Positions 9,008 to 30,497 of a stretch of DNA of 64,000 bases are shown piece by piece (positions within the stretch are counted from its first letter, which is position 1; each line of letters opens with the position of its first letter). The position numbers were made by a program, and so were the translations under genes. Under the pieces are notes generated by a model, which worked only from the letters and a program-made list of their open reading frames with translations, was not told the origin of the DNA and did not search any database. Source of the stretch: Zygnema cylindricum (Eukaryota; Streptophyta; Zygnematophyceae; Zygnematales; Zygnemataceae); assembly GCA_037447655.1 (NCBI GenBank), contig JBBHKE010000667.1, positions 124,001 to 188,000 on the forward strand. Reading direction: 5' to 3'.

Positions 9008-10230
9008 TGTCATGCCCCAAGACGTCGGCGGGTATTATTGCTGATTCTTATTCTAATTGGGGTATAAGGGAATAATACAGGTCGGTGGCGGAGTGTTCAG
9101 TTGAAGTACTGACGGAACTAAGGTCGTATCTTTTAACCGTCATGGAAATAGATTTTGGTACGACATCGGGTTTCGCAAATACGGACAGCTCGAAACCTGA
9201 CATCTTATGTTCTCCAACGGTTACATAACTGACACATGTCTAAGTCGTGAACCCTTGGAGGTTCATGCATTATTTTTGTAGCGTAGGGAGGGTTTTTATC
9301 CTCGAGGTGTAGATGTAAGGCTTTCTGAGGCGGCCACGTAGCAGCCACCTCTAGAAACTGGCAGTGTTTGTACATAGAAAGCTGCTTGCTCAAAGACATG
9401 CAGGAATTAGTGTAGCTGTAGGATAGGCAACAACATAGGATAAAGGCCATGTGGCCGCATTAGATTAGTCACAAATTACAACATGGGAATCCAACATTAG
9501 AGAGTTGTCGTTTTCCGGCAAACTACATTATCGGGATTTGTCGAACCTTTTCTTGCTTCCTTTTCAGTTAGCCTTGCTCGGCGACATATTTAGGATTAGT
9601 TGGTTGTTGAGTGAGGGTTTCTCTTTTCTAGATCCTTAGTCTCTTCCCTAGCCTTGTCTTTGAGCTTTTCAGAGATCTCTTTCTGTACTAGTCCTTACCT
9701 AATCTACCGGCGCAAGCCAGCCTGCAAGGTTTCCCTCCAGACTGTGTTTCACTTGTCGTGCTCTGCAAATCGTGGAGTGTGAATCTTGCGTGTATTATTG
9801 TTGTTGCACGATTTTTGTTGTCTGTCTTATTTTTCCGCTGGCTTTGGAAGTTCCAGTTTTCTCGGAGGTCTCCGCCGGTTAAGGAGAGTTTGCTATTTGG
9901 CAGTTGGACTCTTGTAGGGAATATTGAAGACTTCAGGGCCTAGTGGCTGTCGCAAATATTCCTCTGTTGTAATTTGTTTTTAATTTCTAATTTTCTTTAT
10001 CCTGGGTGTGGATTAGTTTCTTTATTTCTAGTTTATTTTAAATTGTTCATTTATACTTTTCGTCATTTCTTGTGTCAATTGTTTTCTTGCTATTTAGTTA
10101 TTGTGATTGGTTTTTTTTTCGAGCCTAGTGGTTTTCGTTGGATTGCTTTAATCTGTTTTTATCTTCAACCTTTACGGTTTCGTTGCTAGTGGGCTGTGAG
10201 TTGGATATTTAAATCCGGTATAGTGTCATC
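9008..10230 (+). repeat. Gypsy 5' LTR and leader (start firm, end uncertain)
   Basis: From 9008 to about 9965 this matches 23495-24121 plus 29965-30286, which together are the interrupted 3' LTR. Shared landmarks are gggtattattgctgattctt, gaatccaacatt and tagtccttacctaatctacc. Beyond 9965 the 3' copy is truncated, so the true LTR end (expected CA) cannot be read. The text from about 10230 to 10679 is probably leader. Antisense open frames here are repeated only because the LTR is repeated. Confidence 0.75.
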
Positions 10231-11741: not shown

Positions 11742-14700
11742 AGTCTAATTTTAATTTTTCTTTCAACCCGCATTTTTCCCGACAATATTTTAGTTTAGGA
11801 GAGGGCACAGGTTTGGTCATCATGTCAGCCACCATTTCTTCATCAGGTCTATACACAAGATTTAGAATTTTATTTTCAACTTTTTCTCTTACGAAGCTTA
11901 ATCTTATGTCCATATGTTTTGCTTTGAAATGGTGTTTTGGATTGGCTGCAATTGCAATTGCAGCTTGGTTATCGCAAAAGATTTCATGCACTCCCTCCTT
12001 CATAAATCCCAGTTCTTGTAACAATGATTTCACCCACATTAGTTCTTTTACAGCAGAACACGACGCCATATACTCAGCCTCCATAGTAGACTGAGCAACC
12101 ACCTTTTGTTGCTTACTGCTCCAACAGCAAGCACCTTCCCCCACATACAAAACATATCCAGAAGTGCATCTTCTCATAGGTGCATCCCCATAACTGGCGT
12201 CACTCCAAGTGGTGATATCAGTATGCTCCCCTCCCAAATGCAACCATAACTCTCTAGTTCCCACCAGATATCTCATGACTCTCTTGGCTGCCTCCCAATC
12301 TCTCTTCCTAGGATCATTAAGACTCCTACTGAGTACTCCAACTGCTGCCGCTATGTCCGGCCTGGTACAGTTCATAAAATAGATTAAGCTTCCTACGACC
12401 TGTCTATAAGGAATAGACTTCATGAACTCTCTCTCCTCTAGACTCATCTGATCGTCTAAGATCATCACTCCTCCTTCTACACTCCCATCACTTACTTTTT
12501 TCAAGTCCATGGGAGTGGTACAACTGTTAGCATTTTCCATGTGGAATTTCTCAAGCATATTACCTATTGCTTCTTTCTGAGTAAGTCTGATAATCTTCTT
12601 CCCTCTATCTCTCTCCATTTCGATCCCCAAAATATATTTTGCCACCCCTAAATCCTTCATATCAAATCTGCCCCTAAGATCTTTCTTTAGCCTATTGATA
12701 TTATCTAAAGACTTACTTAACACAAGCAGATCATCCACATAAATTGCAATAAAAATGACACCATTCTCATCTTCAAACATATAGATAGAATGGTCAGAGC
12801 TGATCCGGATGTATCCCAGATCGGTGAGAAACTCATCTTGTTTCTTGTTCCACTGTCGGGGAGCCTGTTTCAGTCCATATAAAGACTTTATGAGCCTGCA
12901 CACTTTGCTCTCTTCTCCTTCTTCCACAAACCCCTCGGGTTGCCTCATAAAAATTTCTTCCTCTAACTCACCATTAAGAAAAGCAGTCTTAATATCCATC
13001 TGGTGAATTTCCATGTCTTCCGCTGCGGCCAGACTGAGGGGAATCCTTACCGATGGGAACCAAACAACTGGAGCAAAGGTCTCCTCATAGTCAATCCCCT
13101 CTTTTTGGGTGAACCCCTTTGCTACCAATCGAGCCTTATACCTCTCAATTGTATTATCTGGGTTCAGTTTTAGTTTAAATACCCATTTACATCCAATAGG
13201 TTTTCTGTCTGGAGGGCAATCTGCTAGTTCCCAAGTATTTGCTTCCATGATAGAAGCCATCTCATCATTTATGGCTCTAATCCATCTTTCTTTCTCTGGA
13301 CTATTCACTGCCTCTAAGTAAGACTGAGGCTCATCTGGGTGAGATAGCTTAGTTACCTTATGGGCAGCTTGTTTTTCCTGTATCCTTTTGCTGCTCCTCC
13401 TTCCTCCCTCAAACTCCGAAGCTGGAATGGATGGAAGTCTTGGATTTCTTCTCACTGTGTCATCGGCTCCCCTGTCCATAAAAACCGTATCTTGTCCCGC
13501 TTCTTCCATCTCCTCGAAGTCCATAGGAGTATGTGAGGTTCCCGGTGAGTCTCCTGTATCTTCGATCTCCCCTGAATCTGTAATCACAGTTTCACTCATG
13601 TCTTTTTCGGGAACGACTCAGTTCTCCTCACTTTCGGACTCAAATCTGATCCTTATCTTCTTTGTATATTTGAAGGGGTCAAATGACTTCCCTTCATCCA
13701 TGACAACTAAGTGTTTGACCAGAATGATATCTTTCTTTGCTAAGTCATAGACTCTATATCCCTTAACATCCTCATCATATCCCACAAAGTATCCAGGTTT
13801 TCCCTTAGCATTTAGTTTCCAGTTTTTCCTATCCGTGTCAAGACTGTAAACTTGGCTACCAAATACTTTAAGGTGTGAGATATCTGGTTTCCTTCCAACC
13901 CATCTCTCATAAGGTGTCACTCCCTTTACAGCTGAGGTAAGGACTCTATTTTTAATATAGTTGGCACAGTTCATTGCCTCTGCCCAAAATCTCTTTCCTA
14001 TTTTCTTGTCTGCCAACATACTACATGCACTATCTCCTAGTGTTCGATTCAACCTCTCAGCTACCCCATTTTGTTCCGGGTTATATGGTACAGTTTTCTG
14101 GTGTTGCACTCCCTCATCTCTCAGATATTCCTCAAACTGGTTAGAGGTATATTCCCCCCCATTATCACTCCTTATCCTCTTAATAGGGGTTTCATGCAAC
14201 TTCTCACTCCAAGCTTTATATTCTTTCAAGTAAGTGGATGCTTCAGACTTATTTTTCAGAAAGTAGACTCTAGAGTATCTAGACCAGTCATCAGTTATTG
14301 TCATCATAAACCTCTTTCCTCCAACCGAAGGTACTTTTGCTGGTCCCCAAATATCTGTGTGGACCAAATCTAACACTTTCTCACCTCTATATGTGGCGGC
14401 TTTGGGAAAGGGAAGTCTGTGAGCCTTACCTTGAGCACAACCACTACAATCATCCATTATTTCATTATCCCAAAACTGAATGCCATCTACTACCCCAAGC
14501 TTTTTCATTTCCCTTAACCTATCAAAATGCACATGCCCCAAACGCTTATGCCAAATCATCACCTTAGGAACACCAACATAGTAAGCATTCTTCTTTTCAT
14601 TACTCAAGTTAAGCCTAAACATTCCTTGGCTACCCTTATCTGCTGTGAAGTAAACTTCATTCCCATACTTAGCTGTAAAGACTCCCTTCCTGGTGAAGGT

Positions 14701-16089
14701 ATCAAACTCTTTGTCATCTAACACAGACGTAGAGACAAGATTTTTACTCAACTGAGGAATGTAAAGTACATCTGAGAATGTAAGTATAGAGGTCTTACCC
14801 TCCACTAAGACTTTCAGATCTACTGATCCCACTAGATCTGTAGTAACCACTCTCCCATCCCCATACTCTATCTCTACAGTAGGAATCTTTCGTAGCTTAG
14901 TGAAGAGTTCTTTATCACGGCACATATGCATGGATGCACCTGAGTCGATGATCCATCCTTCCTGTGGAGCTTCCCGAATTGCTCCAAGGGCACACTTCTG
15001 CCTCCGAGGGATCTCCTTCTCCTCCAGACTCTCGTCAAGAAGAAGCTCCCCATCCTCCTCAGATGACTCATCCTCGATTTCTCCTGACACTTTTGTAACC
15101 ACAAGTGCCTTTTTCTTCCCTCCGGAAGAACCCCCTCCACGGTTTTCTTGGAGCCTCAGCTCTGACAACTTGACACAATCTGCAATAAAGTGTCCCGGCT
15201 TTTTGCAATAATGACAAAGACCCTTTGGGGGCCTCTGTCCCCCAGAATTATCTCTTTCCCCTCTATAAGGTTTCTTCGGATCCTTCCCCCATCAGTCCCC
15301 TCCTGCTGCTAGAGCTTGAATGCTCTTTCCTCCTCTCCTAATCTCCATTGTGTTTTCCTGCACAAGTATCATCCTGACTACTGTGTTCCATTTCCATAAA
15401 CTATCAGGCATTCCCTGTACTCGGTACACTAAGTTTTCAAACTCATTTGGTAATTTCATGATAAGGGTGTTAACTTTCATTTTCATTGTACCTATCCACC
15501 CGGCACTTTCCATTTCCGTATACAAACAAGAAAGATCATTACAGTAATCTAACATCTTTCCTCCTTTGTAAGTGTAACTCAATAGCTTTTGCTCAGCCAA
15601 CTGGAGCTCCTGAATAGTTCCAGCTCTATAAATTTCCACCAAACTCACCCACAACTCCTCGGCCTTGTAAATGTGAAGATGAGGAGTGGCCAAACCTTGA
15701 GTGAGGTGCCTCAAAATGAAGTTCTTGGCAGCCATGTTTACATCCTCCCACATTTGAGTATCGTTCTCCACGGTCTTCACAATTGCCGCTCCTGATACTG
15801 TGGCAATAGGAGTTAGGGGTGTCTCCTTCCCTTTCCCCTTTTCGGACACACTGCTGTCCCCATCATCTGCCTCCTCCGCCGAGGCAGCCGTTGTTGCAGG
15901 AAACCTTACTCCCCCAAATCCTGGTGGAGTTCCTGAAGGTGGACGTTTCACTTGTCCACTGACGATACCCCAGTATCGTTTTTCACACAAAGCTCCCATC
16001 ATCATGGCTTCCCAATAGATGAACCCAGATCCATTGAAGGTGGGCACCCTAGAGGGTGGGCCCATAACCTGCAATTCTGTGTCCTCCAT
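11740..16089 (-). pseudogene. Copia gag-pol polyprotein of element A, one frame with two TGA stops
   Basis: A single 1450-codon frame runs from the ATG at 16089 to the stop at 11740, broken only by TGA at 15292-15294 and TGA at 13618-13620. In order it encodes Gag and a CCHC zinc knuckle (CHYCKKPGHFIADC, near 15175-15216). Next comes the aspartic protease (WIIDSGASMHM), followed by the GAG-pre-integrase HHCC zone (WHKRLGHVHFDR...CSGC). Integrase follows with HTDIWGP, RSDNGGEYT and QNGVAERLNR, then reverse transcriptase with YVDDLLVL and RNase H with WSDASYGD, STMEAEYMA and CDNQAAIAIA. The order protease-integrase-RT-RNase H is the Copia arrangement. The start codon lies inside the LTR. Both stops could come from CGA codons by C-to-T change. 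Readthrough cannot be excluded but is not supported by any visible signal. Confidence 0.9.
16058..16069 (-). other. Primer-binding site of element A, copia-type half-tRNA-iMet
   Basis: On the minus strand the LTR end CA is followed at once by GGTTATGGGCCC. This matches the primer-binding site known from Drosophila copia, which pairs with the anticodon arm of a cleaved initiator tRNA-Met rather than with a tRNA 3' end. It contains no TGG complementary to the tRNA CCA end at the border. Here it is also translated, as part of Gln-Val-Met-Gly. Confidence 0.8.
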
Positions 16090-17117
16090 TGGACCACAGA
16101 ATACAGGAAGCCTCTAGATAGTATTTAACTAACCCACTTTAAGCCACAACCACTGCTGCCCAAGAAGGCAAACTGACAATTTGACTGCACCCCTGTAGTA
16201 GCCTAGACTCCCCTGAGTCCGTAGAAAAAAGAATCACTGAAAACGGCCAACCAGGCGATAAGTTATAGGATGGCAAAGATGCCAATTTATACAAACTCTC
16301 TGAGAGAGAGGACTATCTACCTAAATTTTCCTGAGTCCTAGTGTTTCCTAATTCCCTCTCACAGCTCCTATCTACTGCCTGTACGAACCAATCACAAAAC
16401 TGTATAGTACTAGAAAGTACTACTGCCGATGTACTTTCTGTACGGCCTCTGTACGACAAGGCCATAAGTGGACGCGTGTATACTTTCCACTCATCCGTAC
16501 GTTCCTCGGAATTCCCGCGACCGAATGATGTCTCCCCACGTGGCGCCAGGTGATGCCACGTCACTAAATGCCAAAGTGACCACTCTGGGATTTCGGCGAT
16601 GATGTGCGCCGTTGGATTATATGCGAAACGTAATCTTGGCCGGAATAAATACTTGCGCGATATTTGTTCCGATGTAGAAATAAAATGCGTGGTATCCGTT
16701 TTGAATTAGCGTCGTACGACGTACTTTATAAAACTGTATATATGTACGCCGTAAACAGTTTTAGTTAAATGAACTTTATCCTTTCGAACTAAATATATAT
16801 CTATCACATACCATAGCACTTAGCATTGGTCCTAGTCTATTAGGATAAAGCTGACCGCTACCGGACGATTTGACGAACCGCAGGTACCGGGATCAAATCT
16901 CTGGTCCGTCAAGTATATTTTTAGTAACCTACTAAAAATAGTTGTCTGTTGAACTAAGGCAGCCATGGATCAACCTCTCTCTCTTTCCTTCAGTGACTAC
17001 AGCAAGTATGGGGGCTAGAGAGCGGAGGTGGAGGCAGGCTGTCCGTCCTTTTCTTTTTCCTTTTATAAAACCATATTTAAACCTAGAAAATACTCTAGAA
17101 ATCTATAAATTTCAACA
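16070..17117 (-). repeat. 5' LTR of Copia element A (contains the Gag start codon)
   Basis: The 1048-bp LTR ends at 16070, where the primer-binding site begins. ATG at 16089-16087 is followed by codons for MEDTEL inside the LTR, and the next codon (CA/G) straddles the border. The LTR probably carries the promoter, but I cannot place a TATA box with certainty. Confidence 0.93.
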
Positions 17118-17122
17118 CTTGT

Positions 17123-17353
17123 TTTATTACATCTAACCGTTTTGGCTCTGAATAGTTTCTTTTCTTATAACATCTGGCCGTTTTGGCCCTGAATAGTTTC
17201 TTGATTTTTATTACATCTGGCCGTCTTGGCCCTGAATAGTTTCTTGTTTTTTTACATCTGGCCGTGTTGGCCCTGAATAGTTTTCTGCTTTATTACATCT
17301 GGCCATGTTGGCCCTGATTAGTTTCCTTCTTATTATATCTGGCCCCAAGTGGC
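17123..17353 (+). repeat. Tandem repeat, about 42-bp unit, in the gypsy leader
   Basis: Five to six units of the form ttattacatctggccg / ttttggccctgaatag / tttctt are arranged head to tail. The Copia A insertion split this array, since a partial unit remains left of 10675. The array precedes Gag and is probably part of the transcribed leader. Confidence 0.85.
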
Positions 17354-17545
17354 CTTGCATAGGTGGCACGAGGTTGCTTGGCATGGCGTGACGTTAGTGG
17401 GATTGGACAAGACAGTTTACAAGTAGACTGACTGCAGTGATACAAGAAAGGCCCAACGGCGTGGTGTGTCAGTCTTGCGGTTATTTGCATACTTTTGCGT
17501 GTAATTTTATTTAGCTGCATCCGGATAGGACCGTCTTCTGTATAC
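17354..17545 (+). other. Gypsy leader between tandem array and Gag
   Basis: No open frame of note. It contains ggcacgaggttgcttggcat and similar short GC-rich segments. I see no clear function. Confidence 0.4.
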
Positions 17546-19969
17546 ATGCCAACGGATTGGAATAATTTACAATTTCCGGCTGGTACCACTAGAAGCTTAG
17601 GTGCTTACCAAGGGCCCTCCAAAGAGTTTATTACAGCCGGTCCTCCTCCAATATCTTTTCCCAACTCAGCAGTTCAGTCACCATTTTTAGGATCACCTTT
17701 TTAGGATCACCCAGTTAGTCGAGATCTGGTCTCTTTTCGCTCAATAGGTCTACGTCGTTGGTTTCTTCATCTTTCACCCACAGTTCGGGGGAAGAATCGG
17801 ACACCGACTCGCTTGACATACAGGGTCTAGGTTTACCACCGTCAATTTTCTCAGTGGGCCGTACCATACACACTAATCACACCTCTTTTAGTGTGGACAT
17901 GGCCTCGTCCATGGACACCGGAGGTAGTAAACATCATTTCTGTTTTTCTGGTCTCAAGGACACCATGTCCTTGTCTCACTTTCGCATGCTTTTCAATACC
18001 GAAATGCGAGATTTGGTATTTCGGTACCAAGACCGCTACGACCTACGGGTCACTTTTTCTTTACTAAGGAGATACCTCACAGGATCTGCCCTATCCCTTT
18101 ATACCCGTAAATATTAGGAAATTTGTGCTATGACTGAAATAGCACCCGCCTATTCCGGGGCTCCTGCCATAATCGACAGCCCTGAAATTCCTTTCCAACC
18201 CGCTGTCCCGGCAGTTTATGACTCCACAGGCAAAGAAGTTTCACTCGCAATACCTGAGGTCCCTCATCGATTTGCAGTGGCAGCTAGGGCTGCAATTCCG
18301 GCTAGACCAAAAATGTTAGTCCCTCTAAGAGATCGAGTCTCATTAATTTTCGATTTATTACAGGACGAGTATCGGATGCAGAATCCTGACCAAGTCAAAT
18401 AATTAATGAATTTCGAGCGCAGACCGGGTGAAACAACCCCGGCATTGCGGTCACGTATGGAAACTTTGCGTGAGGCCTTACCGGATCTCATGTCAGAGGC
18501 TGAGGCGGTACAAAAATTTGTGGGTCAGTTTCCCACACAATCTCGACGGTTTATTCAGAACCGTCTGACCGAAGCATATGGCCTTAAATTCACTTTCGAG
18601 CAGACTGCAGAGTTTGCTGTGAAGTACGAAATGCAGACCAGCTGGTGGGACGCTCACGAGCGGCCGAAACCTTCACCTAGAGATTACCCTAATCCAAATC
18701 CTAACCATAATCCTAATCCGCGCAACCCATGGCCCAACCCAAGACCTCCAAGGGCCCCCGCCATGTGATCATTACCCACAACGCTAGGAGCGCGTATATG
18801 TTTCCGGTGTGGTCACAGTGGTCACGACGCATGCAGCTGTCCAGACCAAGCAACCACGTGTACTCACAGCAATCAAACAGGTCATTACATACAGCGATGT
18901 CATATTAAAAATCCAAATTTCAGTTATCAAAAACAAATTAAAAACGGCGGTATACCTACTCGTTCGGCTAAATTTGTCACTTTACCGAAAGGGGAAGAGA
19001 AGGACACGTCCCCCAAAATCAGCAGGAGGGACCGAGATAGATAAGAGATGTAGGCAACCATGGCGGCCATGATGAAGGAGCAGTTTGCCGCGCTTACGGC
19101 GCAGGTCAAACCGCAATTAACTGGAATGGCCCGGACCCTAGTCCATATGCCCTCTTTTGCCGGGCGATCTCTCAGAGAGTCAATCGTTCAACAGCGGGCA
19201 ACCCTTTTCAAAGGGACCCCCGATCATAATCGTGAGTCTAAATCCATTAACACTCGCATACTTTTATCTTTCGCTAAAGAACCTAAAACCCTTATCCCGC
19301 AAACAGCCGCTAGCATCACTGCGAAGGCCTTAACCATTCTGGAAGGGAGTATAGAAGATGCCTATAAGGTCAAAGAACGGTTAGCAATACTGTCAACTAT
19401 GCTCCCCGAACTAAATAGTGAGGCAAAATCCTCAAATCTAACGAAAGCTGCTCATGCATTACAAGCGGTTCAAAACCATCGTAGTACCCTAACTCTTCAA
19501 GCGATTACTCTAGAAAAGCGTTACAGTCTTACTCCACACATCAGTTTTCTGGATAACAAGTTAGGCGTTTTCACAGTTAATGGGGTAGCTCCAGCTTTAC
19601 CTCTCATGGACACAGGGGCGAAACCCATTATCCTCGGATCGGCTTTCGCCAAGAAACTAGGTCTGACTGCAGATACGCTACAACCCACTACCACTCGTTT
19701 GTTGACCTCCGCAGGAACCACAGAACCTGTCTTAGGTATGACAAAAGAACCACTCTGTTTTCAATTTCAGTGTCAATCAGATTCCAATTTCGCAGAAATA
19801 TACGCTCACGCCTTGGTCACGAAGTGTAGCAATTATGAGTGCTTGGTCGGCCAAGACGTCATTTTCCGAGTGGGGGGGGGGTTGACATGCATGATCAAAC
19901 ATTTTCGTACAGACCAAACAATTTTCCAAACCACAAAGTTTGTTTATCTCTTATCTCGTCCCGGCAACC
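17546..19969 (+). pseudogene. Gypsy Gag with two zinc knuckles and aspartic protease, decayed
   Basis: The likely start is ATG at 17546 (MPTDWNNLQFPAG). A 14-bp tandem duplication near 17682-17709 (tttttaggatcacc twice) shifts the frame. From there to about 19870 one frame persists, with stops including TAG at 18115, TAA at 18400 and TGA at 18766. The Gag core (17758-18768) ends in a Pro/Asn-rich tail. A CCHC knuckle CFRCGHSGHDACSC follows at 18799-18840. A second one at 18859-18900 has Ser in place of its second Cys. The protease has LPLMDTGAKPIILG at about 19602-19643. A run of nine G near 19871 shifts the frame once more, and the reading then continues into the solo LTR at 19970. Coding resumes after the LTR in the expected phase. 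Confidence 0.85.
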
Positions 19970-20971
19970 TGCAATTATGTGTCCTCCATTGGACTACAGA
20001 ATAGAGGAAGCCTCTAGATAGTATTTAACTAACCCACTTTAAGCCACGACTACTGCTGCCCAAGAAGGCAAACTGACAATTTGACTGCACCCCTATGGAG
20101 CGTAGACTCCCCTGAGTCCGTAGCAAAAAGAATCACTGAAAACGGCCAACCAACCGATAAGTTATGAGTCGGCAAAAATGCCAAGTTTATACAAACTCTC
20201 AAAGAGAGAGAGGTTCCTATCTACCAAAATTCTCTAAGTCCTAAATCCCTCTCACAAACCTTATCTATTGAAGTACGAACCAATCGGATCACTGTAGAGT
20301 ACAAAAAGTATTATGGCCGATGTACTTTCTGTACGGCCCATGTACGGCAATGCTATTAAGTGGACGCGTGTCCACTTTTCATTTGTCCTTATGTTCGCCG
20401 GAATTCTTGCGACCAAATGTCATCCCTCCGCGTGGCGCCACGTCACGCCATGTCCATAAACGTCAAAAGTGACCATTCCGTGATCTCGGCATTGATGTAC
20501 GTCGTCGGATCAGATTCGATATTAAATGTCTGCCGTCGAAAACAAATGTCCGATTCATTTGTTTGCGTGCGAGATAATGTTCGCACTATATAATAATTGG
20601 TTCCAAGTTCTTTCGTTCGTAATTCCGTTAATCGAATTCATAGACGTAACATTGTTTAAGTAAATATCAAACCTAATATATGCTAACGGACTTCTACGAC
20701 AGACTGGTTTGAGCTAACGGCTAAGCCGCGCTCTACCGGTCGGAGGTTCGAGTCCTGCCGGACTCAACCTTTTGTTTAGAGTGACATAAGTCACTCTTTA
20801 GCCCTGCCTGCTTAAGCTAGGACATCCATGGCTCAGCCACCCTCTCTATCCCCGAGTGACTACGGCAAGTATGGTGGGAAGAGAGGGGAGGCGGAGGCAG
20901 GCTGTCCACCTTTTTTATTTTGTACTAAGTTCAGACCTAGAAAATACCATATAAAAATAACAATTTCAACA
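19970..20971 (-). mobile_element. Solo LTR of a Copia element related to A
   Basis: This 1002-bp sequence has the same ends as the LTRs of element A (minus strand TGTTGAAATTG...AATTGCA) and similar order of internal blocks, at clearly lower identity. It is flanked by a perfect duplication caacc (19965-19969 and 20972-20976). No internal region remains, so LTR-LTR recombination removed the rest. It sits in gypsy coding sequence between protease and methyltransferase. Subtracting 1007 bp (LTR plus one TSD) rejoins the reading frame. Confidence 0.93.
20707..20770 (+). other. tRNA-like module inside the solo LTR
   Basis: On the strand opposite to the Copia transcript, GGTTTGAG (20707) can pair with CTCAACC (20764-20770). 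Between them lie a box-A-like agctaacggctaag and a perfect pol III B box GGTTCGAGTCC, and TTTT follows directly. The span of 64 nt is too short for a normal tRNA and I cannot draw a convincing anticodon arm. The equivalent positions of LTRs A and D keep a related motif (gatcaaatc) inside a stem with different bases. It may be a tRNA-derived element or a pol III promoter. Not called a tRNA gene. Confidence 0.35.
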
Positions 20972-21261
20972 CAACCCATGCCTACCACGGCTCAGTCGGC
21001 GTTTTTCCTGCCAGCCTATGCCGCAGTTAGCATAGGTTCTGATATTCTTGAATCGTTAACGGCGGAAGAAATCTTACCAGACCCCTCGGGAATGCCAGAC
21101 CCCCCGAGAATGCCATAATTATTTGGCACCCCAGGTTTTATTATTGACTCGGCAGATTTTGACAGATTGTATAAGTTCACAGTACCGATTCCTTTGAACA
21201 ATATTCCAGATCCACCCGTTATTGCCATGGATCCTCCGGGTTTTCCCCCATTAAATGGAAA
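20972..21261 (+). pseudogene. Gypsy linker region between protease and methyltransferase
   Basis: Coding continues after the solo LTR as QPMPTTAQSAFFLPAYAAV and IGSDILESLTAEEILPDP. A TAA follows at 21116-21118, then GTPGFIIDSADFDRLYKF in the same frame. I do not recognise a domain. The segment connects to the methyltransferase motif after a frame change near 21255. Confidence 0.6.
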
Positions 21262-21405
21262 CCAGTAAACTTACAACCTAACCCGAACGGTCTGGTTATC
21301 TTAGACCTTTTTGCACGTGTAGGTACCACACTTCTCTCTTGCCTTAGGAACGGTATTCTAATCAAGCAATATTATTCTGTAGATATTGACCTTTTGGCTA
21401 GACAG
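21262..21405 (+). pseudogene. C5 cytosine methyltransferase N-terminal remnant (motif I and acidic motif II)
   Basis: The frame from 21262 reads GLVILDLFARVGTTLLS, then a short helix (LRNGI) and YYSVDIDLLAR, before a TAG at 21406. This matches the S-adenosylmethionine-binding motif I of C5 methyltransferases (DLFxGxG) followed by the strand ending in an acidic pair. Here the conserved glycine of DLFAG is Arg (CGT), probably a point mutation. The catalytic PCQ and later motifs are absent because a deletion near 21400 joins this piece to RNase H. Retrotransposon-encoded C5 methyltransferases have been reported in charophytes and dinoflagellates, which fits. The position between protease and RT/RNase H is visible here. 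Alternative: another Rossmann methyltransferase. The V-D-x-D ending and spacing favour C5. Confidence 0.7.
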
Positions 21406-21983
21406 TAGTTATGAGGGGGAGTGCTTGGCCGCAGTTTGGGAAATTGTGCATTTTCGCCATTATCTTTATTGCAAATCTTTTAATCTTCTTACTAACCATC
21501 AACCATTGTATTGTCTTATGACCAATGACAAACTATCCGACAAGTTAGCCCGCTGGGCCCTCATTTTGCAGGAATACGATATGAAGATCATCCATCAACC
21601 GGGGCTACTTAGTTTGAATGCCGACGGTCTTTCCCGAAATCCCTTACCCAATTCTGCCGATAATGGAATACGACATGATTTTGATGACGAACCTATTGCA
21701 TCGCTGTCTGCTGGAGCCCACATGGTTTACAGTTTTTCGGGGCCAACCGCGCACAAAACTGAACACGATCCATGGAGGGACAGCGCTCTGGTCTTATTTT
21801 TATCAACCCAGTCCTTCCGAACACGCACTACACCAGGAGAGGAGGAGCGTGTTGGCAAAAGAGCACAAAATTACTGATAGATGGGAGGTTCCCTTATCCG
21901 TCTCCTCGCAGATGGAAGTCATCGGCATGTTCCTCGGCCAACAGAACCCGTATCACTTATGGATCAAATTCATACTGATCTGA
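21406..21983 (+). pseudogene. Gypsy RNase H and connector, frameless at its 5' side
   Basis: After the deletion junction the sequence encodes SSYEGECLAAVWEIVHFRHY, then TNHQPLYCLM, DKLARWALILQEYDM and a HQPG motif. These are the typical Ty3/gypsy RNase H blocks, but the first DAS-type aspartate region is lost. TGA and TAG occur together at 21875-21880. The same frame continues as LIRLLADGSHRHVPRPTE and ends in IHTDL before a 17-bp tandem duplication. Reverse transcriptase (YxDD) is nowhere in the element. Confidence 0.85.
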
Positions 21984-21999
21984 AATTCATACTGATCTG
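21966..21999 (+). repeat. 17-bp tandem duplication that shifts the pol frame
   Basis: aaattcatactgatctg occurs twice in a row. Seventeen is not a multiple of three, and the shift exactly explains why RNase H and integrase now lie in different frames. Confidence 0.85.
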
Positions 22000-23259
22000 G
22001 GACATTATGGTACTAAACGGACTTTGAGTTTGGTACAAGCACGTTATTGGTGGTCAGGCATGCAGGCGGACGTTGCGGCCGTGTTAAAAGGATGTAGCAC
22101 CTGTGACCGGTTGCGAACCTCCTTCTCTAACCGTCAGACTACACTTCAACCTTTTCCTATCCGAGGTCTTTTCTACAGGTGGTCATGTGATCTGGCCGGT
22201 CCTTTTCCCGTCTCGCGAAGGGGCAAGCAAAACCTTATGATCATGATCAAAAATTTCAGCAAATGGGTGGAAGTTGTGGCCTTTCATCACAAAACTGCCA
22301 AACTCAACACTGCTGCTTTCAAGGAATATGTGCTCCTCCGATGTGGAGCTCAAGCAGAAGTCCTTACGGACCAGGGGACCGAGTTCCGTGGCGAATTTCA
22401 GGAAATGCTGGACGAGGCGTTGATCGATCACCGCCGAACGAGTCGAGATCATCCCTAGGCAGACGGTTTGGCCGAGAGGGCGGTGCAAACATTTAAGCGA
22501 GCTCTGCGTGAACATTGCTTGAAGAAACAGATTACTGTGTGGGATCAATCTTTGGGTTATATTGTCATGGGTTATCGCATGTCTGTACAGGCCAACTTAG
22601 CAAATTTCAGTCCCTATTATGTGTTATTTGGTCGACAACCATTGCTCGGTAGGAATATACAGAAAGCTGTTAGTTTTCCTTTGCCGTTTATGTCGGATTC
22701 CCTTTTTTTGGAAGAACTAACCAACCGGGCTTTGCTTTTTGCTAGGGAAATTCCAATGGCCTTTGAAAACTTGCAGATTGCTCAACATCGCGACTCCTTA
22801 CAGTTTGCAACAACTCGCAGCAGCAGTTACCGGCCCAAACAAAAACCCTATCGGGTGGGGGACTATGTATATTTGCGTCCGCAAACATTTGACACACTTG
22901 ACACGGATGTCTCGTTTAACATATTGAGGATCACCAAAATCGACTCCAATGGATTATTAAACCTACAAAGGGCCGACACGCGGACTTTGCGAGAACATTC
23001 GAAAAATTGTGCTCCCTGCTACCTACATGATCTCTCTCACAGCATGGATCTGTGGCGGATGCCGATTACCGAGGCCACCGAGTGTCAGTTGTGTCGGCGG
23101 TCTGACAGAGAAACGACGATGCTTCTCTGCGACTATTGCAATCTAGGATTTCACATGGAGTGCTTGGTCCCTCCTTTGCACGCTATTCCAGCTAGAGAGT
23201 GGTTTTGCCATGGATGTCGCGACCTACCGGCTCTCCTTCCCAGCTCCCTTGCAAGCTAA
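21984..23259 (+). pseudogene. Gypsy integrase with C-terminal PHD finger
   Basis: The HHCC zinc-binding region is HTDLGHYG...CSTCDR (about 21985-22110). The DDE catalytic residues are all present: Asp in SCDLAGPF (about 22188), Asp in LTDQGTEF (about 22368) and Glu in GLAERAVQTF (22474). A TAG at 22456-22458 replaces the expected Gln in HPQADG and interrupts the core. After this the frame is open to 23259. A C-terminal portion with VLFGRQPLLG and YRVGDYVYLR (integrase C-terminal barrel) leads into a PHD finger. The last residues are PALLPSSLAS. The protein is plus strand, like Gag and protease. Confidence 0.9.
23080..23220 (+). other. PHD finger (C4HC3) at the end of the gypsy polyprotein
   Basis: All eight zinc ligands are present: C in ECQLC (two), MLLCDYC (two), H and C in GFHMEC, and two C in WFCHGC. 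The spacing and the aromatic residue before the last pair are typical of PHD fingers, which bind histone H3 tails. It is in frame with integrase with no stop between. In the element it would give chromatin-directed integration or binding, an inference from domain function. Confidence 0.85.
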
Positions 23260-23264
23260 GGAGC

Positions 23265-23283
23265 GGGGGGGGGGGGGGGGGGG
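23265..23283 (+). repeat. Run of 19 G after the gypsy stop codon
   Basis: An uninterrupted G19 tract lies six bases after the polyprotein stop. It may be an expanded purine tract and could form G-quadruplex structures. Length is prone to assembly error. Confidence 0.8.
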
Positions 23284-23493
23284 ATTCCATCCTTTTTTCA
23301 CTCTCTACCTACCAAACTTGTCGTTGTACTTTTTGTTTGTTCATTGTCTTGAGCTAAATCATTAACATTTCTTATGTTATATATATTATTTGTCCTCTGG
23401 TTTTGTCATACATATGTGCGGTCTATACATTCTTGGCAACGCTAATTGGGTGTGATGCATGTCATTTCACGGTTGTATGCTCATGCACGACAG
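23284..23493 (+). repeat. Gypsy 3' untranslated segment, copy 1 (210 bp)
   Basis: The segment starts attccatccttttttc and ends catgcacgacag, just before the 3' LTR at 23495. It is repeated with the same length at 30288-30497. It has no coding potential. Confidence 0.8.
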
Positions 23494-23494: not shown

Positions 23495-24121
23495 TATCAT
23501 GCCGCAAGACGTCAGCGGGTATTATTGCTGATTCTTATTCTAATTGGGTATAAGGGAATAATACAGGTCGGTGGCGGAGTGCTTAGTTGAAGTACGGACG
23601 AAACTAAGGTCGTACTTTTTTACCATCATGGAAACAGATTTCGGTACGGCATCAGGTTTCGCACATACGAACGGCTCCAAACCTGACATCTTATGTACCC
23701 CAACGGTTACATACCTGACACATGTCCAAGTCGCGAACCCTCAGATGTTCTGTAGCGTAGGGAGGGTTTTCATCCTCGAGGTGTAGATGTAAGGCTTTCC
23801 GAGGCGGCCACGTAGCGGCCACCTTTAGAAACTGGCAGCGTTTGTACATAGAAAGTTGCTTGCTCAAAGACATGCATAAATTAGTGTAGCTATACGATAG
23901 GCGACAGCATAAGATAAAGGCCATGTGGCCACATTAGATTAGTCGCAAATTACAACACGGGAATCCAACATTGGAGAGTTGTCATTTTTCGGCAAACTAC
24001 ATTCTCGGGATTTGTCGAACCTTTTCTTGCTTCCCTTTCAGTTAGCGTTGCTCGGCTGATATTTAGGATCAGTTGGTTGTTGAGTTAGGGTTTCTCTTTT
24101 CTGGATCCTTAGTCTCTTTCC
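23495..24121 (+). repeat. Gypsy 3' LTR, first part
   Basis: Homologous to 9008-9640 of the 5' LTR. The first bases read TATCATGCC where the 5' LTR has TGTCATGCC. It is interrupted by Copia element C at 24122 and continues at 29965 (the duplicated tttcc marks the site). Confidence 0.85.
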
Positions 24122-24935
24122 TGTTGTCTTTTTGGAAAGCTTTCAGTCTCAGAGCAGCGCAGCAACGCAGCAACTATACAGACAGCAAAACAGCTGCTAT
24201 ACGGAAGAGCAGCGCAGCTGTTATACAGCAGAGCTGCGCAGCAGCGAAGCTGCGACAAAGACAGGACAAACGCAGCTACGGTTACTTTGGATAAGATCCG
24301 TACGGACAACGTAGCTGCTACTATCTTGGATATGATTCGGTGCAGGACACCGCAGCCGCGGGTGATGTATTATGATCCGGTACGGGACAACGCAGCTGCG
24401 ATTGATATGAATCTAGTCAACGGACGAGATTCATAAGAGTATCACAAGTGACTTAGCCGACAAGTATTTGTACAAACACTTAATCTAGATTCTGAGTAAT
24501 ATTAACTGTACAATGATAGATTGGGTTGGCATGATCAAGGACACGTAGATCTCAGTAGGTGGGTTGATTTTGGACGTACCTCTCAGGTACACTGTTATCG
24601 GCGGTAGAACACCGAAAGTATAAGACTTAGGAATTAGAGCATTTTTATGTATCCAGACTTCCAAGTAGTAAAACTGCAGACAGTTTTTGGGAAACTTCTG
24701 AGTATTATATCTTGAGTGTTGTTGGGTCAATTGTGCTGAAACTTTGGGGGTTGTCAGTGTTTATGCTTCTCTATATTCGGATAGAGTTTTGTGTGGTTTG
24801 GATGCTTGTATAAGAATTGGTGAGCACTTAAGAACAGCTGGTTGGTAGGATTCTTGATAGCTTCTGAGAGTGTATCATGTCTACTTCTACTACTACTTCT
24901 GCTCCTCCACCTGCACCGGCGGTTGTAGAACAACA
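24122..24935 (+). repeat. 5' LTR of Copia element C (contains the Gag start codon)
   Basis: It is 814 bp long. Near its start it has repeated gcagcgcagc and cagctgttatacagcag motifs. It is longer than the 3' LTR by about 38 bp because it has an extra piece in that repeat. The Gag ATG is at 24877, so the first 19 codons and part of the next are LTR-encoded. Confidence 0.93.
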
Positions 24936-27900
24936 GGTTATGGGCCTGTCATCAATAATTCCTATCTTTTCTGGGGATAAGTATGTTTACTGGGCAGATA
25001 TGGTGGAGACACATTTTGAAAATGTCAATCTTTTGGATATATTGGATGGTTCTTTGGATGAATCTGATCCGTCATGGTCTAAGAAAAATACGCAGGCTCG
25101 TTCTATTTTGAAATTTTGTATATCTGAGGACTTAGCTATGTCTCGGATAAAAATGAAAAAAGCAATTGATATCTGGAAATCCATTAAAAGTGATTATGAA
25201 AAGGCTAATGTTCAGGAAGAACTTCTATTGGCTGGAAAAATTTGGGACTATAAGTACACTGGCGGTACAATGGCTGAATATTCTAACAAATTTCGTATTC
25301 TTGTAGATGCACATGCTTGTGCCGGTGGGGTGTTTCCTCAGTTTCAACAAGCAGCATTGCTCATGCGGGGTCTCCCTCGTAGTATGAAAGGAGCATCTGA
25401 CATGCTCAAACAGAAAGATAAAGCTAGCTGGACTTTACAGTTAGCGATCAATATTTTATTAGAGGAGGAAGCTACATCTAACATCCTCAATGTTGAGCAA
25501 GTAGAGGCTTTTAATTCAGAATTTGGAAAGAAAGGTCAATTTAATCAGCAAAGTAATCAGTTTACCCAATTCAGACAGTTTAATCTGGGGGGCAGTAGAA
25601 AATCAAACAATGCATGTTTTTATTGTAGTGAGAGAGGTCATGGATACAAATTCTGTCCTAAACTTAACCAAGCTAACGATTCCGGTTTATACAGGCCAGG
25701 ATGGCAACAAAGTCAGTTTTACAAAAGCTTCACGAGGCCTACACCTCGTGGAAATGAACTGTTTTCAGCTTCTTCATCACTCCAAGACGAAACTCTGACA
25801 TTTTCTGAGGAGGACGACACGGATCTATTCGCTATGGCGGCAGCAATGGAAGGCGCAAAGGACCCTGGATGGATTATGGATACAGGAGCGTCAGCGCATA
25901 TGTGTTGGAACAAGGCCATCTTCAAAAATCTGAAAGCAACGCCCAAGAAAAATATTTATTATGCTTGTGGAATGAGTGTCCAAACTCGTGCAATGGGGAT
26001 GTGTCCTTGCTAGTTGATGTGGATGGAAAAGCAATTGAAAGGACTCTTCACAATGTCTTTTTTGTGCCTGACTTTAAGAAAAATTTGTTTTCTACGTCGT
26101 TGGTTGAGAGTAAAGGCTTTGAAGTTAGTTTGAAAAATGGTCGGCAGGTTGTTAGCAAAAACGGCAAGGTTGCAGTTACAGGTACTAGAGATAGTAGCAA
26201 GATGTATCGCATGGATATGGCTAATACAAAAGAAAATGATGTTTTGTACTCCGGTGTTTTGCACTTAGATGAGTTGTGGCATAAAAGATTAGGCCATGTC
26301 AACTATGATAGTTTGAAGAAAATGGTTGTTGCTGGAAAGATAGAGGGTGTATCAATCACAGATGGGCCGGTCAAAACTTGCGATGGTTGCGCTTTAGGCA
26401 AAATCCACAGATTGCCATTTCCTAAGGAGTCTGAGCATCGGTCGACGAAACTTTTACAACAAATTCATTCGGATGTCTTTGGTCCAGCGAAGGTTCCTTC
26501 TGCCGGAGGGATGAAATGTATGGTCACCTTCACAGATGATTTCTCCAGGTTTACAAAAGTTTACTTCATGAAGGAGAAGAGTGAAGTGTTTGGTCACTTC
26601 AAACACTATAAAGCATGGGCTAAAAAACTTCATAATTCATCTATTTTGCAGCTCAGATCGGACAATGGTGGTGAATATACATCAAAAGAGTTTGAAACCT
26701 TTTTACTCGAGGAAGGCATTAATCATCTATTGACTGTTCCATATTCACCGGAACAAAATGGGGTGTCGGAAAGACTGAATAGAACTCTCACGGAAAGCTC
26801 TAGATCTATGCTCGCATATAAAAATGTGGATCCGAAATTCTGGGCTGGGGCTCTAAATTGTGCAGTTTATATTAAAAATAGGATAGGATCAAGATCGGTA
26901 GAAACAACTCCTTACAAAAACTGGACAGGTAGCAAACCAGATGTTAGCCATTTCAAGGTCTTTGGTAGTCAATGCTTTATATTGGATACGTCTACAGATA
27001 GATGGAAAATGAAACCGAAGGGATTACCGGGTATTCTGTTAGGATATGATGATCACTCGAAAGGTTATAAAGTCTTTGTGTTTGAAAGACAGAAAATAGT
27101 TGTAGCTAGAAACATCATTGTTAAGGATGAACTAGACTCCATAGATTTATTTCACATGACAGAGCAGCAAAAGCAACAAAAAGTACAGGAGTATGTCATC
27201 TTAGATTGCATGCAGGAAATTGTCCCGCTGTTTCCACAAACTCTGGTAATGACTCCGGAAACAGACTCTCTCCAACTTCCTCACCAACTTCGGGTCCAGA
27301 CGGACCCTGATCAGTCAATACACACGGATCGCAACCAGCGCAATCACGAACACACGGATCGCAACCAGCGCAATCAGCAAGACACGGATCGCAACCAGCA
27401 CAATCAGCGCAATCAGAGCAATGCGCGGGATCCGACGATCTCAGCCTCAGAATTTCCGGGGGGAAGAACATCAAGCACTCGTCTGCAAGCAAGCTCTCAC
27501 TTTGCCTACTCGGCAGTCTCAGGGGAGCCCTTGACCATCCAAGAGGCCTTCTCAACACCAGAGCGGAATCACTGGATTGAGGCGGCAAACGACGAAATGA
27601 AGTCGATCATGGAGGCTCAAACATGGGAGCTCGTGGACCTTCCTCCAGACCGAAAAGCAATCGGGAGCAAATGGGTATTCAAGGTGAAGTTAAATCCCGA
27701 TAACACCATTGAACGCTATAAGGCCAGACTTGTGGCGAAGGGGTACAATCAAAAAGAAGGAATCGATTTTGAAGAAACATTTTCTCCGGTTGTAAGATTT
27801 CCAACAGTTAGGATTTTGCTGTCCCTAGCTGCTATAGAAGATATGGAAATTCATCAGATGGATGTAAAAACGGCCTTTTTGCATAGAGAACTAGAAGAGA

Positions 27901-29102
27901 CCATTTACATGCAGCAGCCTGAAAAGTATGTGGAACCAGGAAAAGAACACTTAGTATGCAAGTTGCTAAAATCTTTGTACGGCCTAAAACAGGCCCCGAG
28001 ACAGTGGAATATAAAGCTTGATGAATTCCTGACTAGTCTAAGATTTCAAAGGATAAGTTCTGATCACTCTGTCTACGTTCTAAAGGGTGAAAATGGGATA
28101 GTATATATAGCGGTATATGTAGATGATTTGCTATTAATTAGCAAATCAATGGCTGAAATTAACAAAATCAAAACTGCTCTAAACTCACGGTTCGAGATGA
28201 AAGACCTCGGTGAGGCAAAATATATTTTGGGTATCCAGGTAGAGAGGGACAGAAATAAGAAAATAATAAAATTGACTCAAAAAGAGGCTATTGGAAACAT
28301 GTTAGATGAGTACGGAATGCAGGGGGCAAAAGGATGTTTAACTCCAATGGAGTTTCGGCAGAAGTTAGAGGGAGAAGAGACAAAACCAGGTGTCATTGTT
28401 AGCGAGTATTTAGAATCAGGGGAGAATGATCCTATGGCAATAATACCTTATAGACAGATAGTGGGAAGCTTAATATACTTCATGAACTGTACCCGCCCTG
28501 ACATTGCTGCAGCAGTCGGGGTACTGAGTAGGAGTCTAGAAAATCCGAGAAAATCTGATCTGGATGCAGCAAAGAGAGTCTTAAGATATTTGGCAGGAAC
28601 TAAAGATCTCAAACTCACTCTAGGCGGAGGAGAAGTCAAGCTGCAGACATGGAGTGATGCAAGCTATGGTGACATGCCAAGCCGGAAATCTATTACGGGA
28701 TTCGTTCTACAAGTTGGGAACGGTACTTGCTGCTGGAGCAGCAAACTTCAAAAGGTGACAGCACAGTCGACAATGGAGTCGGAATATATGGCAGCAAGCT
28801 CGGCCCTCAAAGAACTCTTATGGGCAAAATCCATGTTCCAAGAACTAGGATACATGCAAGTCGGTCCGCAGGTGATCTGGTGTGATAACCAGGCTGCCAT
28901 TGCCATTGCTTCTAACCCGAGTCATCACTTCAAAAGCAAACACATGGATGTACGATTACACTTTGTAAGAGAAAAAGTGTTCTCTAGAGTGATTAAATTA
29001 TGTTACTTACCAGATGCAAAAATGATTGCTGATATGCTCACTAAAGCTCTTCCTGCTCCTAAGCTGAAGTATTGTAGGGAAGCAGTGGGGTTAAGTGAAT
29101 AG
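24877..29102 (+). pseudogene. Copia gag-pol polyprotein of element C with one frameshift
   Basis: The first frame (24877-26013) encodes Gag, a CCHC knuckle (CFYCSERGHGYKFC) and the protease start (WIMDTGASAHMC). At the GGGG of 25995-25998 one G appears to be missing. Coding then continues in the next frame to 29102: rest of protease (DVSLLVDVDGKAI), WHKRLGHVNYDS and CDGC, integrase with IHSDVFGPAK, RSDNGGEYT and EQNGVSERLNR. Reverse transcriptase (YVDDLLLISK) and RNase H (WSDASYGDMP, STMESEYMAA, WCDNQAAIAIA) follow. A linker with repeated TDRNQ units lies near 27320-27420. Frame analysis places the break inside protease rather than at a Gag-Pol border, so a mutation is more likely than programmed frameshifting. 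A sequencing error in the G run is possible. Confidence 0.9.
24936..24947 (+). other. Primer-binding site of element C, copia-type half-tRNA-iMet
   Basis: GGTTATGGGCCT follows the LTR end CA directly, nearly identical to element A and to Drosophila copia. It is translated as part of Gln-Val-Met-Gly in the same phase as in element A. Confidence 0.8.
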
Positions 29103-29173
29103 TTAATTGCTATACTGCTATGCTGCGATACTGCGCTAGTTTATCACCGCAGCTGCGCTGGTATACTGATTCT

Positions 29174-29188
29174 AAAGCTTTAGGGGAG
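29174..29188 (+). other. Polypurine tract of element C
   Basis: AAAGCTTTAGGGGAG abuts the 3' LTR start at 29189. The GGGGAG core is shared with elements A and D. Confidence 0.75.
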
Positions 29189-29964
29189 TGTTGTCTTTTT
29201 GGAAAGCTTTCAATCTCAGAGCAGCGCAGCAGCGCAGCTGTTATACAGCAGAGCAGCGCAGCAGCGCAGCAGCGAAGCTGCGACAAAGACAGGACAAACG
29301 CAGCTACGGTTACTTTGGATAATATCCGTACGGACAACGCAGCTGCTACTATCTTGGATATGATTCGGTGCAGGACACCGCAGCCGCGGGTGATGTAAAT
29401 ACGATCCGGTACGGGACAACGCAGCTGCGATTGATATGAATCTAGTCAACAGACGAGATTCATAAGAGTATCACAAGTGACTTAGCCGACAAGTATTTGT
29501 ACAAACACTTAATCTAGATTCTGAGTAATATTGACTGTACAATGATAGATTGGGTTGGCATGATCAAGGACACGTAGATCTCAGTAGGTGGGTTGATTTT
29601 GGACGTACCTCTCAGGTACACTGTTATCGGCGGTAGAACACCGAAAGTATAAGACTTAGGAATTAGAGCATTTTTATGTATCCAGACTTCCAAGTAGTAA
29701 AACTGCAGACAGTTTTTGGGAAACTTCTGAGTATTATATCTTGAGTGTTGCTGGGTCAATTGTGCTGAAACTTTGGGAGTTGTCAGTGTTTACGCTACTC
29801 TATATTCTGATAGAGTTTTGTGTGGTTTGGATGCTTGTATAAGAATTGGTGAGCACTTAAGAACAGCTGGTTGGTAGGATTCTTGATAGCTTCTGAGAGT
29901 GTATCATGTCTACTTCTACTACTACTGCTGCTCCTCCACCTCTACCGGCGGTTGTATAACAACA
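29189..29964 (+). repeat. 3' LTR of Copia element C
   Basis: It is 776 bp long and about 98 percent identical to the 5' LTR outside one indel. It retains the ATG of Gag (29906), but the copied frame ends at a TAA just before ACAACA. Confidence 0.93.
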
Positions 29965-30286
29965 TTTCCTAGCCTGGTCTTTGAGCTTTTCGGAACTCTC
30001 TTTCTGTACTAGTCCTTACCTAATCTACCGGCGTAAGCCAGCCTGCTAGGTTTCCCTCCAGACTGTGTTTCACTTGCCGTGCTCTATGAATCCTGGAGTG
30101 TGAATCTTGCGTGTATTGTGGTTGTTGCACGATTTCCATTGTCTGTCTCCTTTTTCCTCTAGATTTAGAAGTTTCGGTTTTCTCGGAGGTCTTCGCCGGT
30201 TAAGGAGAGTTTGCTATTTTGGCAGTTGGACTCTTGTAGGGAATATTGAAGACTTTAGGGCCTAGTGGCTACAATCGCAAATATTG
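29965..30286 (+). repeat. Gypsy 3' LTR, second part, truncated
   Basis: It resumes with tttcctagcctgg and follows the 5' LTR to cgcaaatatt (about 9965 in the 5' copy). Beyond this the expected cctctgttgtaatttg is absent and the 210-bp untranslated segment follows instead. Confidence 0.8.
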
Positions 30287-30287
30287 A

Positions 30288-30497
30288 ATTCCATCCTTTT
30301 TTCCCTCTCTACCTACCAAACTTGTCGTTGTACTTTTTGTTTGTTCATTGTCTTGAGCTAAATCATTAACATTTCTTATGTTATATATATTCTTTGTCCT
30401 CCGGTTTTGTCATACATATGTGCGGTCTATTCATTCTTAGCAACACTAATTCGGTGTGATGCATGTCATTTTACGGTTGTATGCTCATGCACGACAG
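30288..30497 (+). repeat. Gypsy 3' untranslated segment, copy 2 (210 bp)
   Basis: Same start (attccatcc) and same last bases (cacgacag) as 23284-23493, with roughly ten differences. In copy 1 the next bases are the LTR. Here the next bases are Copia pol, so the junction lies at the gypsy internal-LTR border. Confidence 0.8.

What the first reader, a model, noticed from the sequence alone, without database searches (positions are those of the whole stretch)
17546..23259. Gypsy retrotransposon that carried a DNA cytosine methyltransferase and a PHD finger
Seen: on one strand and between matching LTRs the order is Gag zinc knuckles, protease (LMDTGAK), methyltransferase motif I (VILDLFARVG) with YYSVDID, RNase H, integrase (complete DDE residues) and an eight-ligand PHD finger. 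Known: C5 methyltransferases have been found in charophyte and dinoflagellate retrotransposons. Inference: the intact parent element encoded a writer of DNA methylation and a reader of histone marks in one polyprotein, so it could mark its own DNA and choose chromatin for integration. The pairing of both modules would be unusual.
Basis: partly seen in the sequence, partly recalled or inferred. Interest (0 to 1): 0.88.

Follow-up and report, generated by a model that had tools for sequence, protein, structure and literature searches.

The report
Green-lineage retrotransposon with methyltransferase and PHD
This is a broken copy of a jumping gene family whose intact relatives encode, in one protein, both an enzyme of the DNMT3 DNA-methylation class and a finger of a kind that reads histones, a pairing that recurs in many such elements from algae and environmental samples.

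The parts
9008..9960 (+). 5' LTR of the Gypsy element (starts TGTCATGCC; end approximate)
   Evidence: 88.9/90.0% identical to the two halves of the 3' LTR; same LTR upstream of related copies L010, L015, L023, L025, L028
9961..10674 (+). Gypsy 5' leader, first part
   Evidence: aligns to L010, L014, L015, L023, L025, L026, L028
10680..17117 (-). Copia element with both LTRs inserted in the leader; LTRs 99.2% identical; target duplication CTTGT
   Evidence: RVT_2 8.8e-82
17118..17545 (+). Gypsy leader, second part, with about 41-bp tandem repeats
17546..18768 (+). gag remnants, in several broken reading pieces
   Evidence: tblastn to related copies, 57-91%
18799..18900 (+). CCHC zinc-knuckle region (first knuckle complete, second lacks one Cys)
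   Evidence: both knuckles complete in L024 and L025; zf-CCHC in L028 only 17.4 bits, under the cut-off of 20.8
19054..19964 (+). protease region (LMDTGAK at 19603-19623), frame shifted at a G run compared with related copies
   Evidence: Asp_protease_2 7.6e-6
19970..20971 (.). Copia solo LTR inserted between protease and the pre-MTase linker; target duplication CAACC
   Evidence: protease and linker are contiguous in related copies
20977..21261 (+). linker between protease and MTase
   Evidence: blastn to 13 of 20 fetched copies
21286..21405 (+). remnant of the DNMT3-like methyltransferase (motif I and II region)
21404..21877 (+). RNase H C-terminal part; joined directly to the MTase remnant by an internal deletion of about 2.4 kb relative to related copies
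   Evidence: RT_RNaseH 1.3e-14; spacing in relatives
21979..23045 (+). integrase: H2C2 finger, DDE core (one in-frame stop), C-terminal part
   Evidence: Integrase_H2C2 3.4e-14, rve 2.3e-10
23083..23217 (+). PHD finger, eight zinc ligands
   Evidence: PHD 6.6e-11
23264..23283 (+). G run, candidate polypurine tract
   Evidence: sequence; same place in L024, L025, L027
23284..23494 (+). 3' untranslated stretch of the family, between G run and LTR
23495..24121 (+). 3' LTR, first part
24122..29964 (+). Copia element inserted in the 3' LTR; target duplication TTTCC
   Evidence: RVT_2 5.7e-79
29970..30287 (+). 3' LTR, second part
30288..30497 (+). second copy of the 3' untranslated stretch, after the LTR (unexplained duplication, 96%)

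Best explanation
SHOWN: the locus is an old, nested, inactivated copy of a Ty3/Gypsy-type LTR retrotransposon family whose uninterrupted copies in the same genome encode one polyprotein Gag-PR-MTase-RT-RNaseH-INT-PHD. The MTase is of the DNMT3 class with the catalytic Cys, Glu and Arg kept; the PHD is a complete C4HC3 finger on the integrase C-terminus. The pairing recurs in a wide set of related elements. INFERRED: the protease frees the parts inside the particle. INT-PHD carries the cDNA to nucleosomes through the histone H3 tail, probably H3 unmodified at K4, as chromodomains do for chromoviruses. The MTase acts on the new cDNA or the target, marking it before or at integration, so that new copies are tolerated by, or hidden from, the host. 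In the Glu lineages the MTase may act weakly, or as a DNMT3L-like partner.
Against: No activity was measured. Motif IV is Glu-Cys, not Pro-Cys, in 13 of 13 own copies that cover it. CpG o/e of five family copies is 0.84-0.89, above the window's 0.74 and the two Copias' 0.54 and 0.68, so heavy CG self-methylation left no depletion. The C-to-T excess could be host-made and is weak in the window copy. For the window's domain order only 2 of 5 database proteins that reach the integrase carry a PHD hit (P0050, P0081 yes; P0051, P0053, P0061 no). de Mendoza et al. could not detect activity of KnitGypsy-Dnmt3 in yeast and call that inconclusive (passages of PMC5890265). The PHD's histone preference is inferred from resemblance only. 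The dN/dS pairs are not independent, include decayed copies, have wide spreads (MTase quartiles 0.16-0.44, RT 0.10-0.53) and lack a neutral control.
Confidence: 0.78

Rival explanations
1. The MTase domain of the window family is kept but catalytically weak or dead (Pro to Glu beside the nucleophile) and serves as a SAM/DNA-binding or DNMT3L-like partner for host or sister-family DNMT3 enzymes.
For: Glu in 13 of 13 own copies that cover the site while a sister family in the same genome has Pro (L029-L031); dN/dS shows constraint; no CpG depletion.
Against: Cys, the motif VI Glu and the RxR are invariant in 14 aligned domains, which a non-catalytic partner would not need; Glu is widespread (20 of 32 scored rows, though eight of the 20 are close Closterium-type rows).
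Confidence: 0.25
2. The PHD finger has nothing to do with chromatin choice; it is a structural zinc module of the integrase tail (or binds DNA or a partner protein).
For: No histone-binding data; 9 of 139 INT+PHD proteins lack a full ligand set, some because the protein is cut short; 5 of 62 proteins with MTase and INT have no PHD hit.
Against: Sequence is closest to PHDs of chromatin proteins, and the position equals that of chromodomains in chromoviruses (PMC3605345, abstract in listing).
Confidence: 0.2
3. Chance juxtaposition: MTase fragment and PHD belong to different elements brought together by nested insertions.
For: The locus is in fact nested, with three Copia insertions and one deletion.
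Against: Both modules lie in one ORF in other copies and on one protein in 57 of 177 relatives.
Confidence: 0.01
4. The MTase was captured twice, independently, at two positions of PHD-bearing Gypsy elements, rather than once and then moved.
For: Two positions (before RT; between RNaseH and INT) split MTase and RT trees cleanly, and the seven window-order rows fall in one integrase clade of 37 that holds none of the 56 other-order rows.
Against: Equally compatible with one capture and one move; no cellular DNMT3 outgroup was in the trees.
Confidence: 0.45

Closest known systems
KnitGypsy-Dnmt3 of Klebsormidium nitens (de Mendoza et al. 2018, PMC5890265)
   Same: Gypsy pol polyprotein with a DNMT3-related MTase under purifying selection; the Klebsormidium proteins P0035 and P0052 (and near-identical P0032, unnamed) fall on the same side of the MTase tree as the window family
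   Different: no PHD is mentioned in its text ('phd' 0 occurrences; figures not seen); Klebsormidium motif IV is FPCQ, the window family WECQ; whether KnitGypsy carries a PHD could not be tested (its held proteins do not reach the integrase)
SymbioDIRS-Dnmt3 and SymbioLINE-Dnmt of Symbiodinium (PMC5890265)
   Same: retroelement-borne cytosine MTases; SymbioDIRS also exists with two different domain orders
   Different: DIRS tyrosine-recombinase or LINE elements, not Gypsy; no PHD in the parts read
Chromoviruses (Ty3/Gypsy with a chromodomain on the integrase C-terminus)
   Same: histone-reader-type module at the integrase end of a Gypsy element
   Different: PHD instead of chromodomain, and an MTase in the polyprotein
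Ginger1-9_HM DNA transposon (Bao et al. 2010, PMC2836005, passages)
   Same: PHD finger C-terminal to a Gypsy-type integrase domain
   Different: DNA transposon whose listed C-terminal domains are Ulp1 and PHD, with no MTase
Arthropod retrotransposons with a captured methyl-CpG-binding domain (de Mendoza 2019, title seen in a reference list)
   Same: retrotransposon that captured a DNA-methylation module
   Different: by its title, a reader of methyl-CpG, not a writer

Membership tests
Ty3/Gypsy LTR retrotransposon | LTR pair flanking gag and pol | tested here: met
   LTRs 9008-9960 and 23495-24121+29970-30287
Ty3/Gypsy LTR retrotransposon | order PR-RT-RNaseH-INT with INT last of the enzymes | tested here: met
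   in related copies and, without RT, in the window
Ty3/Gypsy LTR retrotransposon | RT groups with Ty3/Gypsy in an RT tree with outgroups | not tested
   RT_RNaseH (PF17917) and RVT_1 hits fit Gypsy; no outgroup tree was built
DNMT3-class C5 methyltransferase | sequence closest to DNMT3 among solved C5 MTases | tested here: met
DNMT3-class C5 methyltransferase | DNMT3 catalytic-domain fold | tested here: met
DNMT3-class C5 methyltransferase | motif IV Pro-Cys | tested here: not met
   Glu-Cys in the window family; Pro-Cys in the sister family L029-L031
DNMT3-class C5 methyltransferase | methylates DNA | not testable with these tools
   no assay
PHD finger | C4HC3, eight zinc ligands in PHD spacing | tested here: met
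   window 23083-23217; 12 of 20 own copies by best match (two of the 12 with a stop inside), 130 of 139 relatives; Pfam 6.6e-11
PHD finger | binds a histone H3 tail | not testable with these tools
   inferred from resemblance
Chromovirus | chromodomain at the integrase end | tested here: not met
   Pfam lists PHD and no Chromo for the window ORF at E <= 1
KnitGypsy-Dnmt3 | Gypsy pol with DNMT3 MTase ahead of RT | tested here: met
   same MTase position in the window family; K. nitens P0052 has MT then a weak RT match
KnitGypsy-Dnmt3 | PHD finger present or absent | tested here: inconclusive
   held K. nitens proteins stop before the integrase; no protein named K. nitens among the 120 of 310 hits listed

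The most novel reading that the evidence does not exclude
An ancient Gypsy superclade of the green lineage carries a split copy of the logic of host DNMT3 (an H3-tail reader plus a de novo DNA methylase) in its polyprotein, uses it to integrate into chromatin of one H3 state and to pre-mark its own cDNA, and has repeatedly toggled the MTase between two chemical states by exchanging Pro and Glu beside the catalytic Cys, with both states coexisting in one host genome.
Probability: 0.22. Interest if true: 0.88.

Novelty: new variant of a known kind. Interest (0 to 1): 0.66.

Why it matters
DNMT-bearing retrotransposons were described as independent captures in dinoflagellates and one charophyte. 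Here the MTase is an old, widespread part of PHD-bearing Gypsy elements (hits named Haematococcus, Closterium, Klebsormidium, a Mesvir1 label taken as Mesostigma, the liverwort Calypogeia for INT-PHD, and many unnamed records), so writer and reader modules have travelled together long enough to be compared by evolution. It makes a standing question directly testable: whether such elements mark their own DNA and choose chromatin. The natural Pro and Glu forms offer a built-in comparison of the methyltransferase.

Tried and rejected
Tried: (1) Pfam on the 77-aa MTase piece: no family; replaced by a profile test with control ORFs. (2) LTR pairing of 16070-17119 with 19970-20971 as Gypsy LTRs: rejected, they are Copia LTRs. 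(3) CpG depletion as a sign of self-methylation: not found; o/e 0.84-0.89 in five copies, 0.86-0.87 in the two window coding pieces, 0.79 and 1.00 in LTR parts, against 0.54 and 0.68 in the Copias, 1.06 in the solo LTR, 1.04 and 0.70 in window 1-9000 and 33000-64000, 0.74 overall. (4) C-to-T context test against one young copy as proxy ancestor. Twelve decayed copies (L009-L015, L017, L019, L020, L022, L023): CG 0.15-0.19, CHG 0.15-0.23, CHH 0.12-0.14; reverse 0.09-0.14, 0.07-0.12, 0.11-0.12. Three young copies (L026-L028): CG 0.05-0.06, CHG 0.05-0.08, CHH 0.03-0.04; L024 none. Two window pieces: CG 0.12-0.13, CHG 0.14, CHH 0.12-0.13; reverse CG 0.08-0.10. It cannot separate host from element methylation. 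(5) A rooted DNMT3 tree: no cellular outgroup obtained. (6) Host name: not identified; 88 matches to chlorophyll a/b-binding proteins show a photosynthetic eukaryote. (7) PHD in KnitGypsy: not resolvable. (8) Foldseek against PDB: machine busy; VIA-align used. BFVD gave phage and giant-virus C5 MTases, best TM 0.60 on the query. (9) No tRNA by ARAGORN and no Rfam family at gathering score in the window. (10) A genome search with the MTase piece did not complete. (11) The last lines failed; they were run again.

Literature: ten full-text searches. In their listings (two of them capped: 20 of 158 and 12 of 25 papers shown) and in the passages I opened I saw no paper that names a PHD finger in an LTR-retrotransposon integrase together with a DNA methyltransferase. 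Subscription journals, figures and supplements were not seen. PMC6338049 (passages) already states that DAM- and DCM-encoding Ty3/Gypsy and DIRS elements occur in green algae and charophytes.
Full report
What is in the window. Self-comparison and the boundaries show a nest. A minus-strand Copia with both LTRs (10680-17117, LTRs 99.2% identical, target duplication CTTGT) sits in the leader of a plus-strand Gypsy element. A Copia solo LTR (19970-20971, target duplication CAACC) sits just behind the protease. A plus-strand Copia (24122-29964, target duplication TTTCC) sits in the Gypsy 3' LTR. The Gypsy LTRs are 9008-9960 and 23495-24121 + 29970-30287 (89-90% identical). Related copies confirm the empty sites: protease and linker, the two leader parts, and the two LTR parts are adjacent there, for example in L010 and L015. 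Between these insertions lie gag, CCHC, protease, an MTase remnant, RNase H, integrase and PHD.

Is the MTase real. Pfam does not hit the 77-aa piece. The window's genome (352.8 Mb, 2689 contigs) has 39 scored relatives of the integrase-PHD stretch besides the window's own, 82-93% identical, out of 475 candidates of which 40 were scored. Among 20 copies fetched, the MTase piece is matched in 13 by the short query (in L018 in an upstream partial copy). The full-domain query matches 14, with L018's upstream part left out of that count. One of the 20 (L016) is cut by a contig end. Uninterrupted frames show Gag-PR-MTase-RT-RNaseH-INT-PHD in one ORF. One ORF of L028 gives DNA_methylase 5.3e-11 and RVT_1 1.8e-29. 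A family profile without the own-genome row scores the window piece E 6.2e-8, against 1.8 for the best unrelated one of 791 window ORFs.

The odd residue. All 13 own copies that cover motif IV read Glu-Cys, codon GAA, where DNMT3A has Pro-Cys. Of 36 MTase rows from many elements the site was scored in 32: Glu 20, Pro 12. Of the four unscored, P0030 shows Pro in the alignment column and three have a gap there. The tree, built with that site and its neighbours left out, needs five changes; its well-supported branches alone force fewer (2 for the Glu label). A second family in the same genome reads Pro (L029-L031); its stretch on C544 also ends in a PHD finger (24.5 bits, just over the Pfam cut-off of 24).

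Constraint. Median pairwise dN/dS among copies: PR 0.17 (44 pairs), MTase 0.23 (89), RT 0.32 (150), RNase H 0.22 (152), INT 0.38 (187), INT C-part 0.34 (187). The MTase is thus as constrained as the polymerase parts, though pairs are not independent, spreads are wide, decayed copies blur the ratio and there is no neutral control. One copy has identical LTRs over the 434 bp shared in the stretch held, so the family moved recently; the window copy is old.

How wide. Three protein searches gave 178 proteins, of which 177 were used (P0026, a lamprey PHD/RING protein, dropped). The last search had 310 hits, of which only the best 120 were listed and used. Domain scans with family profiles: 139 have INT and PHD, 62 MTase and INT, and 57 of those 62 PHD too. 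The MTase sits before RT in 12 and after RNase H in 32 of the 44 proteins that have it together with RT or RNase H; PHD is on 2 of those 12 (most end before the integrase; of the 5 that reach it, 2) and on 28 of those 32. MTase tree: the two positions separate at 98/99 (33 rows, 4 of unknown position); RT tree: 100/98 (16 rows). In an integrase tree of 137 rows the seven window-order rows lie in one starred clade of 37 that holds none of the 56 other-order rows; this holds without the joined window row (quick method, many weak forks). Two long PHD proteins (P0123, P0129), with over 500 residues ahead of RT, show no MTase hit, so the MTase can be absent. The Closterium proteins P0051 and P0053 and the unnamed P0029, P0030 and P0061 have MTase and integrase but no PHD hit. 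Named sources include Klebsormidium nitens, Closterium, Haematococcus lacustris, labels Mesvir1 (taken as Mesostigma) and Chrzof1 (taken as Chromochloris) and, for INT-PHD, the liverwort Calypogeia fissa.

The PHD. All eight ligands are present in the window and in 130 of 139 relatives. Nearest solved relatives: PHF12, KMT2D, Lid/KDM5, WSTF, BAZ2A/B, UHRF1, PHF21A, AIRE. From recall, most of these read an H3 tail unmodified at K4 or R2. The place on the integrase tail is that of chromodomains in chromoviruses (abstract of PMC3605345 in listing), and PHD or chromodomain fusions to a tethering factor shift HIV-1 integration (PMC8149907, passage).

Against and for self-marking. CpG o/e in five family copies is 0.84-0.89, window 0.74, the two Copias 0.54 and 0.68. 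The context test shows a modest CG and CHG excess in young and decayed copies, weak in the window copy, possibly host-made. KnitGypsy-Dnmt3 showed no activity in yeast, reported as inconclusive (PMC5890265 passages).

Verdict. The architecture is shown. The mechanism (chromatin-targeted integration plus marking of the element's own DNA) is inferred, at about even odds. KnitGypsy-Dnmt3 (PMC5890265: two of seven parts of the running text, one section and passages read) is the nearest known kind; the DNMT3-PHD pairing, the two MTase positions in Gypsy and the Pro/Glu exchange are what I saw no print for in the ten searches listed.

Noticed in passing
window 23284-23493 and 30288-30497: A 210-bp piece of the Gypsy 3' untranslated stretch is repeated at 96% just behind the 3' LTR, where it does not belong.
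   Followed up: partly
L029-L032 (G000 C544, C1374, C412): A second MTase-bearing Gypsy family in the same genome, with canonical WPCQ motif IV and, on C544, a borderline PHD finger.
   Followed up: partly
window 51381-54346/55687-58637 and 54343-55687/58853-60190: Recent tandem duplication (98.9% and 95.2%) holding a gene with citrate-transporter (CitMHS) similarity.
   Followed up: no
window 62169-63434: ORF with NUP50 and RanBP1 domains, a likely host nucleoporin gene.
   Followed up: no
window 4391-5101: hAT transposase dimerisation region.
   Followed up: no
window 39724-42862: 1.6-kb tandem repeat (81%) with two long open frames (429 and 546 codons) that match no Pfam family at E 0.001.
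   Followed up: no
P0150 (protein search): A relative annotated with a chromodomain as well as a PHD finger.
   Followed up: no
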